Shown: positions 17,769 through 27,547 of the stretch, one piece after another | How the letters are laid out: each line of letters opens with the position of its first letter | How positions within the stretch are numbered: position 1 is the stretch's first letter | Notes under the pieces: generated by a model | What the model saw: the letters and a program-made list of their open reading frames with translations, nothing else | Database searches by the model: none | What the model was told of the DNA's origin: nothing | Assembly: GCA_002792535.1 (NCBI GenBank) | Contig: PFOM01000021.1 | Location: 1-41,990 of the forward strand | Source of the DNA: Candidatus Peregrinibacteria bacterium CG_4_10_14_0_2_um_filter_38_24 | GTDB lineage: Bacteria > Patescibacteriota > Gracilibacteria > UBA1369 > LOWO2-01-FULL-3 | Length of the DNA stretch: 41,990 nucleotides | Direction: 5' to 3' | Translations under genes and position numbers: made by a program

Positions 17769-19175
17769 ATGAAAATTCACGATACGAAGACTGGAGAATT
17801 GGTCGAATTTGAGCCCATAAATGACGGAAAGGTCGGAATGTATGTGTGTGGACCGACTGTTTATGATTTTGGGCATTTGGGGCACGGCAGAAGCGCTGTG
17901 TGCTTCGATGTGATTCGGAGGTATTTTATTTATAAGGGGTATGATGTGAAATTTGTGTCGAATTATACTGATATTGATGACAAAATGATAAATCGTGCGA
18001 AGGAAAAAGGTATTAGTGTCGAGCAGTTGGCGAATGAGATTATTCCGGAATATGTTCGTGATTATACAGCGCTTGGAGTTATGCCTTCGGATATTTCGCC
18101 AAAAGCGACGGACAAAGACAATATTGCGGAAATGATTGATATTATTGAGAGGCTTGAGAAGAAAGGACATATCTACGTTTTGGATGACGGTGTTTATTTT
18201 GATGTAAAAACTTATAAGGAATATTGCGAATTTAGTGGACAGAAGCTTGAGGATTTGAAAGTCGGGGCGAGAGTTGACGTGAAAGAAGGCAAAAGAAATC
18301 CTTATGATTTTGTGCTTTGGAAGTTCAAAAAAGAAGGAGAACCGGCTTGGCCAAGCCGGTGGGGAGAAGGTCGTCCCGGTTGGCATATCGAATGTAGCGC
18401 TATGAGTTTTCTTCATTTGGGTGAAAAATTTGATATTCATGGAGGTGGGCTTGATCTAGTTTTTCCGCATCATGAATGTGAAGTCGCGCAATCGCTTTGT
18501 GCGTTTGGACCGGATTCGTTTGCAAAATATTGGATGCATAACGGATTTATAAATATCGACAATGAAAAAATGAGCAAAAGTTTGGGGAATTTTTTTACTT
18601 TGAGAAATGTTTTTGAAAGATATGATCCGAAAATCGTGAGATTTATGTTTTTGCAAACGCATTATAGAAATCCGATAAATTTCAGTTTTGATTTGTTGGA
18701 ACAGTCAAAGGCGGGACTCGAAAGGTTGAGAAATTTTGCGAGAAATTTGAAAGTTGGATATGAAAGCTTGTCGAAGGATGTCTATGAAGTTGGGGCTGTA
18801 AAGCTGACTGTTGACGCCAAGCATATGCAAAAAGGATTTGAGGAATTTATGGACAATGATTTTGATTTATCCGGTGCGCTTGGTGTGGTTTTTGATCTGG
18901 TTAAATCTGTGAATGGTTTACGGGATGCCAAAAAACTTACTCAAGAAGACGTAGATGAGGCTGAAAAATTTTTGAAAAATGTTGATGAAGTTTTGGATGT
19001 GATATTTGAAGAAGAGGAAGATTTAGATGGTGATGTAAAGGCTTTGATTGAAAAACGAGAAGAAGCGAGAAAATCAAAAGACTTCGCGATGTCTGATAAA
19101 ATTCGTGATGAGCTCAAGGCAAAAGGAATCGAGCTTGAGGATACGGCAGGTGGGACTATTTGGAAGAGGGTTTAA
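17769..19175 (+). CDS. cysS: Cysteinyl-tRNA synthetase
   Basis: MYVCGPTVYDFGHLGHGRSAVCFDVI, GRPGWHIECSAMS, DIHGGGLDLVFPHHECEVAQS, KMSKSLGNFFTL. Confidence 0.98.
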   Translation: MKIHDTKTGELVEFEPINDGKVGMYVCGPTVYDFGHLGHGRSAVCFDVIRRYFIYKGYDVKFVSNYTDIDDKMINRAKEKGISVEQLANEIIPEYVRDYTALGVMPSDISPKATDKDNIAEMIDIIERLEKKGHIYVLDDGVYFDVKTYKEYCEFSGQKLEDLKVGARVDVKEGKRNPYDFVLWKFKKEGEPAWPSRWGEGRPGWHIECSAMSFLHLGEKFDIHGGGLDLVFPHHECEVAQSLCAFGPDSFAKYWMHNGFINIDNEKMSKSLGNFFTLRNVFERYDPKIVRFMFLQTHYRNPINFSFDLLEQSKAGLERLRNFARNLKVGYESLSKDVYEVGAVKLTVDAKHMQKGFEEFMDNDFDLSGALGVVFDLVKSVNGLRDAKKLTQEDVDEAEKFLKNVDEVLDVIFEEEEDLDGDVKALIEKREEARKSKDFAMSDKIRDELKAKGIELEDTAGGTIWKRV

Positions 19176-19181
19176 TAATGT

Positions 19182-19451
19182 CTACTTGTTTTTTGAAAGC
19201 TTGTAGATTGCAAGGATTTCTTTTGCCGCCTTTTCGGATTTACCAGATTTTATTTGATCAACAACATGTGTGACCAAATGGTTCTGCAGAATCAAGTCCT
19301 CAACTCCGGAAAGAGCTTGCTTAACGGCTAGGGACTGCGTAATTATATCTATGCAGTATTTTTCCTCTTTTACCATGCGTTGTAGTCCCCTGATTTGGCC
19401 TTCTATAATTTTCAGACGACGTTCGGCTTTGCTTTTTATATCTTTTTTCAT
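19182..19451 (-). CDS. CsoR/RcnR (DUF156) family metal-responsive repressor, paralog 1
   Basis: RRLKIIEGQIRGLQRMVKEEKYCIDIITQSLAVKQALSGVEDLILQNHLVTHVV. The ORF track's start (TTG, 19493) lies in the putative -35 box and reads through the operator; the ATG at 19451 is the better start. Confidence 0.9.
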   Translation of the reverse strand: MKKDIKSKAERRLKIIEGQIRGLQRMVKEEKYCIDIITQSLAVKQALSGVEDLILQNHLVTHVVDQIKSGKSEKAAKEILAIYKLSKNK

Positions 19452-19463
19452 AAATTCGCGGTT

Positions 19464-19493
19464 AGAATACCCCCTAGGGGTGTTAATTGTCAA
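19464..19493 (-). promoter_or_regulatory. CsoR-type operator nested between -35 and -10 of paralog 1
   Basis: Minus strand: TTGACA (plus 19488-19493), 17-18 nt spacer containing ACACCCCTAGGGGGTA, then TATTCT. Operator core 19468-19482. Confidence 0.75.
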
Positions 19494-20264: not shown

Positions 20265-20534
20265 ATGAATTATGCTATTAAAAAGAAAGTAATTCGTAGG
20301 CTTAAAATTATTGAAGGGCAAGTCCGGGGGCTGCGGAATATGGTTGAGAGGGAAGATTATTGTATCGATATTATCAATCAGTCGCTTGCGGCAAAAAGTG
20401 CTTTGTCCGTAGTGGAAGATTTGATGCTTGAAAATCATCTTTCTTGCCATGTTGTCGAACAAATAAAGTCCGGTAATGTTGCAAAGGCCACTAAAGAAAT
20501 TTTGAACGTCTACAAGCTTTCAAAAAATAAATAA
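20265..20534 (+). CDS. CsoR/RcnR (DUF156) family metal-responsive repressor, paralog 2
   Basis: RRLKIIEGQVRGLRNMVEREDYCIDIINQSLAAKSALSVVEDLMLENHLSCHVVEQIKSG. Confidence 0.93.
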   Translation: MNYAIKKKVIRRLKIIEGQVRGLRNMVEREDYCIDIINQSLAAKSALSVVEDLMLENHLSCHVVEQIKSGNVAKATKEILNVYKLSKNK

Positions 20535-20551
20535 TTTATAATTTCACGTAT

Positions 20552-21046
20552 ATGTCTAAGAAAATACTTTTCATTGTTGGTGCAATTGTATTGCTTGTTG
20601 TAGGTGTAGTTGTATTTAGTAATGCAAAGACTAAAGAAAATAGATTACGATTGTCGGCTCTTACGCAGGACGTTAAGGCTGTCGTTGTTGCTGATTCTAC
20701 CTGTGGATGCTGTAAGCTCTATGCTAAATATCTTGAGCAACAGGGGTTTGATGTAGATTTACAGGAAAAATCTCAGGCTGAGGTGGATGCTTATAAAAAA
20801 ACTAATAATATTCCTGATTCTTTGAAAAGTTGTCATACGACTCGCATAGGAAAATATGTTATCGAAGGCCATATTCCTATGGAAGGAATTTCAAAATTGC
20901 TTGAAGAAAAACCTGATGCGCTCGGCATTGGTATGCCTGGAATGCCTTCCAGTTCTCCTGGAATGCCTGGGCCTAAAAATATGCCTTTTATCATGAATCT
21001 TATTACTAATGACGGGCAGAAAGGTGATTTATTCTTAAAAATCTAA
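20552..21046 (+). CDS. DUF411-family (metal/copper-associated) exported protein with Met/Pro-rich tail
   Basis: N-terminal TM; VVVADSTCGCCKLYAKYLEQQGFDVDL...IPDSLKSCHTTRIGKYVIEGHIPMEGISKLL; GMPGMPSSSPGMPGP segment. Confidence 0.87.
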   Translation: MSKKILFIVGAIVLLVVGVVVFSNAKTKENRLRLSALTQDVKAVVVADSTCGCCKLYAKYLEQQGFDVDLQEKSQAEVDAYKKTNNIPDSLKSCHTTRIGKYVIEGHIPMEGISKLLEEKPDALGIGMPGMPSSSPGMPGPKNMPFIMNLITNDGQKGDLFLKI

Positions 21047-22062: not shown

Positions 22063-22977
22063 ATGAAAAAGAAATCTAAAAAATTCTGGAAAAAATATAG
22101 TAGACCGTTTTCTGTTGCTTTATTGGTTGTTTCTATTTTGACTTTTAATTTGTTATTTAGGGTGGAAATTTTTCTACGTTGGAATGTTTCTACTACTGAG
22201 AATACTTTTGAAAATAAAACGGCAAATTTGAAAAAGAATCTTTTTCCTGATGGAGGCAAAGAATTACCTGTAAAATGGGGAGATCTCGGCCAAAAATTGG
22301 TCGCAGATGGTGTGATCGATCAAGATCTTTTTGAGTCTATTTACGTCGAAAGAGGAGGGATGAATGAATATGAAAAAAATCTAATGTATGGTGCTGAGAA
22401 CAATAATCTAAAAATTACGGCCGAAAATGCGGGGTTTTTATTGAATGTCTTTTGGGGATTGGGCCTTTCGAATAAAAACCCCATACTTGAGAAGGGGCCG
22501 ATGCAAGATGTGCAATATGGAGGCGCAGGAAGTTTTGCTTCGACCGGTGGTTGGACTTTGGGGGTTGGAGATGCGATGAATCACTATAGTATGCATAATT
22601 TTATTCCTTTGACTGACGAACAGCAGATTTTGGTTGAGGCGGTCTCTCAAAATATTTATAGACCTTGCTGTGGCAATTCTACGTATTTTCCTGATTGCAA
22701 TCATGGAATGGCAATGCTCGGGTTTTTGGAGTTAATGGCGTCACAAAATGCTACTGAGAAGGAAATGTACGATGCGGCTTTAGCCTTAAATTCCTATTGG
22801 TTCCCGAGTAACTATCTGACTATTGCGAGTTATTTTGAAAAAGAAGGTGTGTCTTGGGGGGATGTTTCTCCGGTTGACGTTTTGGGGTTCAATTATTCAA
22901 GCTCTGTAGGCTTCAGGCAAGTTCTTTCTCAGGTTAATCCAGTACAGACGCAAGGTGGCTCAGGATGCTCGGTTTAG
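22063..22977 (+). CDS. Membrane-anchored extracytoplasmic protein with CC-x8-C-x-HGMAM putative metal motif
   Basis: N-terminal TM; YRPCCGNSTYFPDCNHGMAMLGFLELMASQ; last gene of metal-island operon; no family recognised. Confidence 0.75.
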   Translation: MKKKSKKFWKKYSRPFSVALLVVSILTFNLLFRVEIFLRWNVSTTENTFENKTANLKKNLFPDGGKELPVKWGDLGQKLVADGVIDQDLFESIYVERGGMNEYEKNLMYGAENNNLKITAENAGFLLNVFWGLGLSNKNPILEKGPMQDVQYGGAGSFASTGGWTLGVGDAMNHYSMHNFIPLTDEQQILVEAVSQNIYRPCCGNSTYFPDCNHGMAMLGFLELMASQNATEKEMYDAALALNSYWFPSNYLTIASYFEKEGVSWGDVSPVDVLGFNYSSSVGFRQVLSQVNPVQTQGGSGCSV

Positions 22978-23128: not shown

Positions 23129-24133
23129 ATGTCTCAGACTGATCTTGTGCAGGAAGATGTAACCGTTTCAACTTTGAACCCTGAAAATGTTGACCAAAGG
23201 TTGTTTGCTGAGATTTTTGATGGTATTGGTCGAGGAATCGAGGAGTTGAAAGCTAATTCACTGGTTCGACTTAATTCTGAAAATCTAAAGAAGTTGAGCG
23301 AATTAGATAAGGTTTATTTTCTTTTAGCTCCTGAATTGGCCAAGTATTTGGAGGAGAATCCCGAGGCTATTTCTGCAAATAATGATGTGATTAAAAATTG
23401 CTTTTCGCGTTTGGGCGAAAAATTTCCTTGGAGAAGTGAATTACAAGATTTAGGGGATTTCCATGAATTTGGTATTCTTTCTGAAAATGATGTTTTTTTA
23501 GGAAATTTTCATCTAGTGCCTTATTGGGCGTCTGGGGGGGAAAGTTATACGGCTATTGATTTAGTTGTGTATTTGCACGAGGGGCAGGTCAAAACTAAGC
23601 CGATGGCTAAAAAGGCTATTACCGTTGGGAGTGCTGATCTTGTTGTAAAATCTCATCTTTCTCGGTTAGCGGATTTGGAGCAAAGAGGTATTAAGATTGC
23701 TAAAAATTATGGCGAAAGAGGTGCAGTGATTTTTCAGGACTTGTATCATGATTCCATGCGGCAGGTTATTGAGGCGATAAAGGTCGATCCTATTGCAAAT
23801 AAAGGTTTGTTAGATGGATTAGTGCGTATAGCTTATGTTTTAGATAGTAGCGGCTATGATACTATGAAATTTTTAGATGACATGATTTTTGATGGGCAAA
23901 ATTTTAGATATGTTGATGGTGGACATGATTTGGGAGATAGGCGTGATAAGTCAATTCCTCTAAGTCCATTTCTACGCAGTGTTATTAAGGAATTTCCAGC
24001 TCTAAGCTATCTTACCCAAAAGTTTCCAGATGCGGAAGCTTTGATTAGAGAGTCTTATGGTCAACTTTCTGAATCTGAAGTGGATTCGACTGTGGAGGAT
24101 GTTGCTTATAAAGTTTCTTCTTCTTCTCTGTAG
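23129..24133 (+). CDS. Putative divergent kinase-like-fold protein
   Basis: KPMAKKAIT..., GAVIFQDLYHDS hinge-like segment, LLDGLVRIAYVLDSSGYDTMKFLDDMIFDGQNFRYVDGGHDLGD. By eye it aligns with the C-terminal half of the adjacent 24141-25661 protein. Confidence 0.5.
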   Translation: MSQTDLVQEDVTVSTLNPENVDQRLFAEIFDGIGRGIEELKANSLVRLNSENLKKLSELDKVYFLLAPELAKYLEENPEAISANNDVIKNCFSRLGEKFPWRSELQDLGDFHEFGILSENDVFLGNFHLVPYWASGGESYTAIDLVVYLHEGQVKTKPMAKKAITVGSADLVVKSHLSRLADLEQRGIKIAKNYGERGAVIFQDLYHDSMRQVIEAIKVDPIANKGLLDGLVRIAYVLDSSGYDTMKFLDDMIFDGQNFRYVDGGHDLGDRRDKSIPLSPFLRSVIKEFPALSYLTQKFPDAEALIRESYGQLSESEVDSTVEDVAYKVSSSSL

Positions 24134-24140
24134 TTGTATT

Positions 24141-25661
24141 TTAATTTGGTATGCGTTTCTTGGCTGCTATGTTTATACTGTGTTTGTTGTATCTTTTTCG
24201 TATTTCGCTGGATAGTTTTGGGTCGTCTCCAAACTTTTGTAGTAAGTCTGCAAGACCTGTGCTTATTTTATTTTCAGATGCGGATTCGATGTTCACACTA
24301 CTGCTTCCGAAGTATATCCATCGTTTGCCATTGTAAAGAAAATTCTCAACGATATTTCTTGATTTTATTCCTTCTGCATCCATTAATGCTGCGGCATAAA
24401 TTAATCCGTCGAGAATGTCGCATCTTTTTCTGACGTCGAAATCAGAATTATTTGCTACACTTAGTACTGTAGCATTACTTGATGGTACATATTCTCTTAA
24501 TAGCGCTGGTGCTCCTTCGTTGTCCGTTGTTGTGCCATACATTTTAGGAGTCCCTGTCTTTAGTCTTGATAAGTGTCGTGTCGGATTTGCTCTTCTTAGT
24601 AGTTTTTCAAATGATTTTGTGCGATTTACTTCTCCTTCAGCTAAAGCTTTATTTATGCCTCCTTCCGTCGTCTCTTCATTGTCAAATGATTTTACTAGAA
24701 ATCTTCTGTGGATTTGTTTACCTTTTTTGTCTATAAGTGAAACAATATATGCTGTGAATGAAGATCCTATGTAACTGATTTTTTGTTTTGGAATGAATTT
24801 TTCTATTGCAAGGAATACTTCTCCGTCTTCCAATATGCCGTTTGCTCTTATTGTTTCCTCTGACATAAATTTGTCCCCTGTTTCGTGAATTTCTAGCATT
24901 TTATCTACCTTTTTACTCATCCATCCTGCTTCGTATTTGATTGCTTCAACTTTTTTCTCCGGTGTGTCTTCGTTGCTACCGTGGCCGACATTTCCTCTTA
25001 TGTCCCAACCATATCTTCCACGAATTGTTTGCCCTGTTGTGTCCTTATCCGGCATTGTAGGTCCAAGTTGTCTTCTCCATTCATCTACGGCTCCTCCTTG
25101 CTCTGAATAAAGAAGTACCATTGTTGTGGCGCCACTTGTCATATATTTTTCGAAACGAGCCCATGCGGTCGTTTTTCCGTTTGTTTCAGCATCCGGCTTT
25201 GCGCTTAACATATCGTAAATACTCGCATAGAAATATTTGACATCACTCGGGGTCATATGTGTAGGCAACGCAAAAAGAACTCTTAATGGAGGTAAAATTT
25301 CTTCACGTATGATTTTGCTTGCTATTGTGCTGTCACTTGATTCACTTTTTCCTTTATGAACTTGTGGTTTAATTAAAGCGACTGTGATTTTTTCTGCTTC
25401 TATTAATTCTTGTAGTTTTGGATTTTTTAAAAGCTGAGATACGAGTCTGACTCTTTCTTTTTCTCTTTCGTGCAGTTGCACTGCATTACATTCAGGGTCT
25501 GTTGTTAATCCTTCCTCTTTTGCAAAATCGTCAGGCCGTACATCACAAAGTCTTGCATTTATGTTTTCACGGCAATGATACGGAGTTGAGATAACCGGAG
25601 AAAGTGTCAAATCTTCCGGAAAGTCCTTTATGTCTTCTGGTAAAGATTCTTTTGTATACAT
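24141..25661 (-). CDS. Nucleoside diphosphate kinase domain fused to a C-terminal kinase-like domain
   Basis: KITVALIKPQ...YFYASI...FEKYMTSGATTMVLLYSEQGGAVDEWRRQLGPTMPDKDTTGQTIRGRYGWDIRGNVGHGSNED is an NDK signature (aa ~91-240). C-terminal half resembles the 23129 protein. Confidence 0.8.
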   Translation of the reverse strand: MYTKESLPEDIKDFPEDLTLSPVISTPYHCRENINARLCDVRPDDFAKEEGLTTDPECNAVQLHEREKERVRLVSQLLKNPKLQELIEAEKITVALIKPQVHKGKSESSDSTIASKIIREEILPPLRVLFALPTHMTPSDVKYFYASIYDMLSAKPDAETNGKTTAWARFEKYMTSGATTMVLLYSEQGGAVDEWRRQLGPTMPDKDTTGQTIRGRYGWDIRGNVGHGSNEDTPEKKVEAIKYEAGWMSKKVDKMLEIHETGDKFMSEETIRANGILEDGEVFLAIEKFIPKQKISYIGSSFTAYIVSLIDKKGKQIHRRFLVKSFDNEETTEGGINKALAEGEVNRTKSFEKLLRRANPTRHLSRLKTGTPKMYGTTTDNEGAPALLREYVPSSNATVLSVANNSDFDVRKRCDILDGLIYAAALMDAEGIKSRNIVENFLYNGKRWIYFGSSSVNIESASENKISTGLADLLQKFGDDPKLSSEIRKRYNKHSINIAAKKRIPN

Positions 25662-25703: not shown

Positions 25704-27098
25704 TTAACCAGAAATATTACTTTTGTCAAGGACTTTTAGTAGTCCATGAATATTGTAGATGTCCCCTGCTCCCATTGTTACGATTATGTCGTATTTGGAG
25801 TGGTTTTTGAGGATGAATTTTGCTGTTTTTTCGAGGCCGCCACCATCTGTGGCTTTTTGTTTTTTGCAGGCTTTGTTTATTTCTTCTGCGAGGATTTTTG
25901 CGGAGATTTTTTTTATATCTTCGGCTTTGTCGCGGACTTTATAAATATCAGGGATAATTACTTCGTCTACTGCGTGAAATGAGTTTGAGAAACCTTTTAA
26001 GAGTTCTATTGTGCGATTGTGTTGATGTGGCTGGAATACACAAAGGATTTTTGAGTGAGGATTGTCTTCGCGAATTGCGGCGAGGGTTAGCGTGATTTCT
26101 GTTGGATGATGGCCGTAATCGTCGATGATTCTTGTTTTGCCTATGAATGGTTTTTCTTCGAGCCTGCGCCAAGTTCCTTTGAATTTTTTTATTGAAGACT
26201 CTATGTCTTTTGAGGAAATTTTTAGCAAATCCCCTAATATTGCCGCCATTGAGGCATTTAGCTTGTTGAAGGCTCCGACAACGTGTGGAGTAATTTTTGT
26301 TGTGGTGTTTTTTCCGTGCAAAATATTATTTTCCCTGTCGAAGAAAAAGTTAGCGATCTTGTTTCTTTCGCTTAAGGCAATCACTTTATTTTGATTTCCC
26401 GACACGTTTTCCGCCTTATTAGTTGCATCAACTGAATTTTTGTCATCACTATTTATTATTACAATCCCGCCTTTTTTTAGTTTTTCTGACATTTGAGTGA
26501 ATGCACTTTTGTAGTCTTTTAAATCTTTGTAATAATCCAAATGATCAGCTTCTATGTTTGTTATTATGAGAATATTTGGATGAATATTCAAGAAAGATCT
26601 TTTGTATTCGCAGGCTTCTATAACCAGATATTTGGACTTCCCCACTCTGAAATTTTGATTACCAAATTCGCGTATTTTTGTGCCGATTACTACTGTCGGA
26701 TCGAGTCCTGCGTTCTTGAGTAAAAGTGCGGTCATGGCTGTAGTTGTGGATTTTCCATGTGCTCCAGCAACAGCAATTGTAAAATATTCTTTTGAAAGTT
26801 CTCCTAATGCTTGTGGATATGTGATAGTTTCGATCCCTAGTTTTTCGGCTTGCAGAAGCTCCGGATTGTCTTTTGGTATTGCCGGAGAATAGACCACTAG
26901 AGTCGTATCTTTTGTGATATTTTTAGCATCATGACCTATCGAAACTTTTATCCCGCTCTTTTTTAATACAGTGGTAATTTCACTCGCCTCCATGTCTGAA
27001 CCGCTCACTGTGAAGCCTTTTTTCTTCATGATATGAGCGATGGCAGAGGTGCCGATTCCGCCAATTCCTATAAAATGTATATCTTTCTTTTTCAGCAT
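25704..27098 (-). CDS. murC: UDP-N-acetylmuramate--L-alanine ligase
   Basis: KDIHFIGIGGIGTSAIAHIMKKKGFTVSGSDM, AVAGAHGKSTTTAMTALLL, TNIEADHLDYY, DDYGHHPTEI. The ATG at 27098 is preferred over the track start at 27173, which would overlap the divergent gene. Confidence 0.96.
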   Translation of the reverse strand: MLKKKDIHFIGIGGIGTSAIAHIMKKKGFTVSGSDMEASEITTVLKKSGIKVSIGHDAKNITKDTTLVVYSPAIPKDNPELLQAEKLGIETITYPQALGELSKEYFTIAVAGAHGKSTTTAMTALLLKNAGLDPTVVIGTKIREFGNQNFRVGKSKYLVIEACEYKRSFLNIHPNILIITNIEADHLDYYKDLKDYKSAFTQMSEKLKKGGIVIINSDDKNSVDATNKAENVSGNQNKVIALSERNKIANFFFDRENNILHGKNTTTKITPHVVGAFNKLNASMAAILGDLLKISSKDIESSIKKFKGTWRRLEEKPFIGKTRIIDDYGHHPTEITLTLAAIREDNPHSKILCVFQPHQHNRTIELLKGFSNSFHAVDEVIIPDIYKVRDKAEDIKKISAKILAEEINKACKKQKATDGGGLEKTAKFILKNHSKYDIIVTMGAGDIYNIHGLLKVLDKSNISG

Positions 27099-27148
27099 TT
27101 GAGTAAATGTTTTACTTATGATAGAGTTTTTTCGCCTAAAAATGCAAT

Positions 27149-27547
27149 ATGTCTTCACGTTTTTCTCATACATCCAGCCTTACAAGAGCTATTATAATTG
27201 TTGAATTTTTGCTTGTCTCTTACTTGATTTATTCTCTTACGAAGAATGTTTACAATAGTTATAAGATAGATAGCTATATTGATACTTTTCGTGCAGAAAA
27301 TGAGCGGATTGCCCAAGAAAATGCGAAAAAAAATGATGATTATCTTTATTTTACATCTGAGGAGTATATCGATAAAATCGCGAAACAAAGCCTTGGATTG
27401 GTTAATCCCGGTGAGGAAGTTATTGTGCTTTCGGAGGATGTTTTGAGTAAGAACGAAGATCTCTTGGAGGGTGGAACTGGTGATTTTGCTAAAGATGCAG
27501 GACTTTCAAATGCACAAAAATGGTGGAAGTTCTTCTTTGGTGGTTGA
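27149..27547 (+). CDS. FtsB/DivIC-family septum formation initiator-like protein
   Basis: Single N-terminal TM, coiled coil (RAENERIAQENAKKNDDY), SEEYIDKIAKQSLGLVNPGEEVIVL. Confidence 0.85.
   Translation: MSSRFSHTSSLTRAIIIVEFLLVSYLIYSLTKNVYNSYKIDSYIDTFRAENERIAQENAKKNDDYLYFTSEEYIDKIAKQSLGLVNPGEEVIVLSEDVLSKNEDLLEGGTGDFAKDAGLSNAQKWWKFFFGG

What the first reader, a model, noticed from the sequence alone, without database searches (positions are those of the whole stretch)
24141..25661. NDK domain fused to a kinase-like domain
The central region carries the NDK residues expected for catalysis (human/Dictyostelium numbering): K12 (ALIKPQ), Y52 (YFYASI), R88 and T94 (EWRRQLGPT), R105 (TIRG), N115 and H118 (NVGHGS). 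It is embedded in a 506-aa protein with a ~90-aa N-terminal extension and a ~260-aa C-terminal domain. Housekeeping NDKs are about 140-150 aa single-domain proteins, so this suggests a regulatory or effector NDK that may feed or control an attached kinase-like module.
Basis: partly seen in the sequence, partly recalled or inferred. Interest (0 to 1): 0.75.

Follow-up and report, generated by a model that had tools for sequence, protein, structure and literature searches.

The report
Second NDK fused to pseudokinase-like domain
A Peribacteria genome carries, besides its ordinary nucleoside diphosphate kinase, a second, enlarged one with all its catalytic residues, fused to what looks like a dead protein-kinase fold and sitting beside a gene slot whose contents differ between species; it looks like a regulated accessory enzyme, with its job unknown.

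Summary
It is not the housekeeping NDK, because the genome has a canonical 168-aa copy elsewhere. It belongs to a deep, well-supported clade of 'long NDKs' found in two families of the order and in one distant genome of the phylum. The last ~240 aa match no Pfam family. An AlphaFold model (pLDDT 73, pTM 0.72) matches only protein kinases at the top of a PDB fold search, though with low TM-scores. Alignment shows the catalytic Asp and metal-binding Asp are lost, so it is probably a pseudokinase; dN/dS of about 0.1 shows it is maintained. An unfused form exists: in genome G231 a stand-alone long NDK is followed directly by a stand-alone homologue of this domain. Another unfused homologue lies convergent to it in the window (23129-24133). 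In sister genome G128 the same slot instead holds an unrelated, possibly ADP-ribosyltransferase-like gene, swapped precisely from start to stop. Best reading: an NDK with a regulatory pseudokinase domain, working with exchangeable neighbour proteins. Mechanism is inferred; the fusion is apparently undescribed.

The parts
25392..25661 (-). N-terminal helical extension, aa 1-90 of the 506-aa protein; its second half (aa ~60-90) is shared by stand-alone long NDKs of other families
24876..25391 (-). NDK domain (aa 91-262) with all catalytic residues (K98, Y145, R196, T202, R214, N224, H227), an insertion after IKP, an insertion in the 'KP' loop and no base-stacking Phe
   Evidence: PF00334 E=1.9e-10; alignments; fold match to solved NDKs
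24141..24875 (-). C-terminal kinase-like domain (aa 263-506) that keeps the beta3 Lys and alphaC Glu and lacks HRD Asp and DFG Asp: predicted pseudokinase
   Evidence: AF2 pLDDT 73, pTM 0.72; Foldseek PDB hits listed are all kinases; motif alignment
23129..24133 (+). 334-aa convergent gene: stand-alone homologue of the C-terminal domain, closer to the G231 stand-alone gene (33%) than to the fused domain (about 20%)
25704..27173 (-). murC (UDP-N-acetylmuramate--L-alanine ligase), same strand, 42 bp upstream; upstream neighbour of the fusion in all four species of the genus
   Evidence: TIGR01082 E=6e-129
17769..19175 (+). cysS; far border of the variable slot that lies between the fusion's 3' end and cysS in the genus
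   Evidence: synteny

Best explanation
The gene encodes an accessory NDK, not the housekeeping one. The NDK core very probably still runs the ping-pong phosphohistidine reaction through H227, but with an altered base pocket (the KPF60 stacking Phe is lost and loop insertions are present), so its nucleotide or protein substrate differs from that of a normal NDK. The C-terminal domain is most likely a protein-kinase fold that has lost catalysis (no HRD Asp, no DFG Asp) and acts as a ligand- or partner-binding regulator of the NDK. It arose by fusion of two neighbouring genes, long NDK followed by a kinase-like gene, an arrangement still seen unfused in G231. The complex probably acts together with the protein encoded in the adjacent, exchangeable slot (a kinase-like or a possibly ADP-ribosyltransferase-like gene), for instance by controlling or neutralising it in a nucleotide-dependent way. 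Shown: NDK residues, conservation, fused and unfused forms, linkage, gene swap. Supported by model only: kinase fold. Inferred: regulation and partnership.
For: NDK HMM and residues; canonical NDK elsewhere in the genome; long NDKs form one clade with full local support, including distant G434. C-terminal domain fold: AF2 pTM 0.72 and Foldseek hits to kinases only, led by JAK2 JH2 pseudokinase, E about 1e-4. Catalytic motif losses. Strong purifying selection on the C-terminal domain. Unfused pair in G231 with an 18-bp gap. The kinase-like family occurs in 5 of 90 genomes of the order, all five among the six that have a long NDK. Precise gene swap in the slot, start codon to stop codon, between G128 and G231 with 76-82% identical flanks.
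Against: TM-scores to kinases are only 0.3-0.4, and sequence and profile comparison with kinases is negative. Linkage rests on only two independent lineages. In G128 and G231 the slot gene appears to have its own promoter, so co-expression with the NDK is not implied. Nothing here shows a physical interaction or any activity.
Confidence: 0.5

Rival explanations
1. Conflict or toxin-antitoxin-like cassette: the swapped slot gene (ART-like or kinase-like) is a toxic or effector enzyme and the long NDK, with or without the fused pseudokinase, is its immunity or modulator protein.
For: Allelic swapping of the slot gene with precise borders; ART-like generic pattern (FRG...GVFYTDSPxxAxxY) in L006 and L007 slot genes, each found only beside a long NDK; four species of the genus hold three kinds of slot content.
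Against: No PADLOC, Pfam, PHROGs or PDB match for the slot genes; no toxin assay; the NDK is the constant part and the 'toxin' the variable one, unlike common toxin-antitoxin layouts.
Confidence: 0.18
2. The NDK simply carries structural appendages (oligomer-stabilising or localisation domains) and works as a back-up NDK.
For: All NDK catalytic residues kept; omega about 0.1 in both domains.
Against: A canonical NDK is present; the domain exists as separate genes beside long NDKs, so it has a life of its own; base-pocket Phe lost.
Confidence: 0.17
3. The C-terminal domain is an active but atypical kinase-fold enzyme (AMPylase or glutamylase, as SelO or SidJ are pseudokinase-fold enzymes), possibly acting on the ART-like neighbour as SidJ glutamylates an ART.
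For: beta3 Lys and alphaC Glu conserved in all six members; small, possibly ART-like neighbours in three of four fusion loci; precedent of SidJ described in PMC12599244.
Against: Neither metal-binding nor catalytic acids found in the fused form; ART assignment unproven; no direct similarity to SelO or SidJ tested.
Confidence: 0.1
4. One reading: the NDK supplies NTP to, or is controlled by, an active attached protein kinase.
For: Kinase-like fold.
Against: Loss of both catalytic Asp residues in all four fused proteins.
Confidence: 0.05

Closest known systems
Canonical nucleoside diphosphate kinase (Ndk/NME, PF00334)
   Same: Domain HMM, His-based catalytic set, solved NDK fold as best structural match
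   Different: 506 aa instead of 140-170; insertions after IKP and in the KP loop; base-stacking Phe lost; canonical C-terminal tail replaced; separate clade
Eukaryotic multi-domain NMEs (NME7/FAP67, NME5, TXNDC6/NME9 type)
   Same: NDK inside a larger protein; Trp-Arg-x-x-x-GPT motif; among the best PDB profile hits
   Different: Partner domains are DM10, thioredoxin or a second NDK (own knowledge), not a kinase fold; axonemal proteins of eukaryotes
Bacterial pseudokinases (families reviewed in PMC12599244, EssB/YukC, SidJ)
   Same: Kinase-like fold with lost catalytic motifs, retained by selection
   Different: No detectable sequence relation to kinases; fused to an NDK; the review does not mention NDK fusions
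JAK2 JH2 pseudokinase
   Same: Top fold match of the C-terminal model; pseudokinase regulating an attached enzyme is the functional analogy
   Different: 11-14% identity, low TM-score; analogy only

Membership tests
Nucleoside diphosphate kinase (PF00334) | Profile score over the curated cut-off | tested here: met
   41.1 bits, cut-off 27; stand-alone relatives 79 and 60 bits
Nucleoside diphosphate kinase (PF00334) | Catalytic residues K12, Y52, R88, T94, R105, N115, H118 | tested here: met
   K98, Y145, R196, T202, R214, N224, H227; invariant in the alignment with canonical NDK
Nucleoside diphosphate kinase (PF00334) | Base-stacking Phe (F60 in KPF) | tested here: not met
   Asp in the fused proteins, Glu in the G128/G231 relatives; lowers the claim of canonical specificity, not of family membership
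Nucleoside diphosphate kinase (PF00334) | NDP kinase activity and phosphohistidine intermediate | not testable with these tools
   needs a bench assay
Protein kinase-like fold | Kinase fold (N-lobe sheet plus alphaC, hinge, helical C-lobe) | tested here: inconclusive
   AF2 pLDDT 73, pTM 0.72; all listed PDB hits are kinases at E about 1e-4 to 1e-3 but TM 0.3-0.4
Protein kinase-like fold | Sequence or profile match to PF00069 or known kinases | tested here: not met
   No Pfam kinase hit; no PDB hit; hhalign to Hanks kinases of G128/G231 probability 0.2%; no PF00069 hit in the own genome
Active protein kinase | beta3 Lys and alphaC Glu | tested here: met
   K in RRFLVKSF, E in LAxxE, present in all six members (the Glu register of the G231 gene read by eye)
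Active protein kinase | HRD catalytic Asp | tested here: not met
   KSRNIVEN / DTMKFLDD / GILGFISD at that position
Active protein kinase | DFG metal-binding Asp | tested here: not met
   YFGSS/YIGSS in fused proteins; Asp retained only in stand-alone relatives (VDGG, LDTG)
ADP-ribosyltransferase (slot genes in L003, L005, L006, L007) | ART profile match and R-S-E or H-Y-E motif | tested here: inconclusive
Toxin-antitoxin or defence system | Match to described families; toxicity and neutralisation | tested here: inconclusive
   No PADLOC match; toxicity not testable here

The most novel reading that the evidence does not exclude
An undescribed regulatory system in Patescibacteria: an NDK core controlled by a pseudokinase domain, paired with a neighbouring slot whose effector (kinase-like or ADP-ribosyltransferase-like) is swapped between species, so that NDK chemistry or phosphohistidine transfer controls an exchangeable effector.
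Probability: 0.22. Interest if true: 0.75.

Novelty: new variant of a known kind. Interest (0 to 1): 0.48.

Why it matters
NDKs are normally treated as single-domain housekeeping enzymes. A lineage of enlarged, accessory NDKs with a regulatory pseudokinase would be an NDK-based regulatory route in tiny-genome bacteria that have no recognisable Ser/Thr protein kinase of their own (four genomes of this genus). The fused and unfused forms and the swapped slot make the functional partnership directly testable.

Tried and rejected
Viral-contig scans failed twice (machine gave no answer). Phage records: no match. The 334-aa protein's weak hits in G212 and G194 turned out to be glycosyltransferases. 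The G049 and G311 weak hits to the NDK were an ordinary NDK and an unrelated frame. The NanE (E=0.11) and Tli4_C (E=0.014) Pfam hits were rejected as below cut-off. ART assignment of the slot genes could not be confirmed by profile or PDB search. The kinase-like family was not detectably related to the Hanks kinases of G128/G231, nor to the small slot genes. Literature searches found no description of an NDK-pseudokinase fusion. Descent of the long NDK from the Peribacterial housekeeping copy by recent duplication is disfavoured by the long separating branch.

Full report
WHAT IS THERE. The window belongs to a Candidatus Peribacteria genome of 1.10 Mb; the nearest named relative carries the same gene at 84% identity. 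The finding's ORF lies on the minus strand, 24141-25661, ATG start, 506 aa. Pfam sees only NDK (E=1.9e-10). The full-length AlphaFold model finds solved NDKs as its best fold matches. The genome also has an ordinary 168-aa NDK on another contig, so the long protein is an accessory copy.

THE LONG-NDK CLADE. Relatives occur in all four species of the genus as the same fusion. Stand-alone 230-250-aa forms occur in two genomes of another family, G128 and G231, and a 281-aa form occurs in the distant G434. In a tree with the canonical NDKs of the order and one from G434, the long NDKs are one clade (local support 1.00, long branch). Shared marks are an insertion after IKP, a WR-x-x-x-GPT-x-P motif and loss of the KPF base-stacking Phe. 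Catalytic chemistry is thus kept while the base pocket is changed (sequence observation plus established NDK enzymology).

THE C-TERMINAL DOMAIN. It has no Pfam, NCBIfam, PHROGs, PADLOC or PDB sequence match. A model from six homologues reaches pLDDT 73 and pTM 0.72, with strand and helix order typical of a protein kinase. Every PDB fold match listed is a protein kinase or the kinase-like KEOPS subunit, led by the JAK2 JH2 pseudokinase (E 9e-5, probability 1.0), though TM-scores are only 0.3-0.4; the viral library also gives mostly kinases. Read against kinase motifs, the beta3 Lys (RRFLVKSF) and an alphaC Glu (LAxxE) are present in all six members. The HRD Asp is absent from all, and the DFG Asp is absent from the four fused proteins but present in the two stand-alone ones (VDGG, LDTG). 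The mapping of motifs is my reading of the alignment. The domain is nevertheless under strong purifying selection (omega about 0.08-0.14, NDK part 0.06-0.15; synonymous sites are near saturation in the more distant pairs). So it is kept for a function that is probably not phosphotransfer. The four genomes of this genus have no PF00069 kinase at all.

ORIGIN BY FUSION. In G231 a stand-alone long NDK is followed after 18 bp, same strand, by a stand-alone homologue of the C-terminal domain. This is the unfused counterpart of the fusion. The window carries such a stand-alone copy too, convergent to the fusion (23129-24133), and it is closer to the G231 gene (33%) than to the fused domain (about 20%). 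In 90 genomes of the order the kinase-like family is found in five, all five among the six that carry a long NDK. The two lineages are independent, the five genomes are not.

THE SWAPPED SLOT. G128 and G231 share the same neighbourhood: a 307/312-aa gene, the long NDK, one slot gene, then a PAP2 gene. DNA identity is 76% up to the slot gene's start codon and resumes at 82% at its stop codon, but the coding sequences between are unrelated: kinase-like in G231, a 223-aa gene in G128. A homologue of the G128 slot gene (39%) lies directly behind the fusion in G094 and nowhere else in 90 genomes. G194 and G082 have a different small gene in the same place. In the window the slot between the fusion and cysS holds the 334-aa gene plus a metal-responsive group. 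Both small-gene types show a pattern reminiscent of ADP-ribosyltransferases, but no profile confirms it.

HOW IT MOST LIKELY WORKS. Shown: intact NDK residues, altered base pocket, conserved accessory domains, fused and unfused forms, exchangeable neighbour. Inferred: the pseudokinase-like domain regulates the NDK or docks a partner, and the pair acts on or with the slot protein. The layout of a constant enzyme beside a swapped gene resembles conflict cassettes, which is the leading rival. In G128 and G231 a good promoter (TTGTAA/TTGTGA, 17 bp, TATAAT) lies directly before the slot gene's ATG (visible in the sequence printed), so the slot gene is probably expressed on its own as a leaderless message.

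NOVELTY AND LIMITS. Literature searches of the open library found no NDK-pseudokinase fusion, and the 2025 review of bacterial pseudokinases does not mention NDK (PMC12599244). Each part is of a known kind and the combination is new, hence 'new variant'. The main weaknesses are the modest model quality, the handful of genomes, the lack of a metagenome search, and no biochemical evidence.

Noticed in passing
window 19182-19493 (-) and 20265-20534 (+): Two closely similar CsoR-like repressor genes near a DUF411 gene (20552-21046), with three palindromes of the type TACCCCcTAGGGGTA at about 19466, 20147 and 20240: a copper-type metal-response island inside the variable slot.
   Followed up: partly
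L050/L051 before the slot gene: Conserved sigma70-like promoter (17-bp spacing) ending a few bases before the ATG of the slot gene: probably a leaderless transcript shared by two unrelated genes.
   Followed up: partly
L066 4904-5749 and 6032-6574 (-): Distant genome G434 has a long NDK about 280 bp downstream of a second NDK of 180 aa with a large internal insertion.
   Followed up: partly
L052 6310-7761 (-): In G082 an aminotransferase class I/II gene (483 aa) has entered the slot between the fusion and cysS.
   Followed up: no
L005 3162-3485 (-): A small, hydrophobic SMR-like transporter ORF (107 aa) lies between murC and the fusion in G082.
   Followed up: no
L053 1379-5797 (-): A 1472-aa protein in G094 appears to hold two MutS-like ATPase regions in one chain.
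   Followed up: no
window 22063-22977 (+): 304-aa protein with a membrane-anchor N-terminus and no family match, next to the 334-aa kinase-like gene.
   Followed up: no
G128 and G231: These genomes have two to four Hanks-type kinases (PF00069) of 313-344 aa, whereas the window's genus has none.
   Followed up: partly
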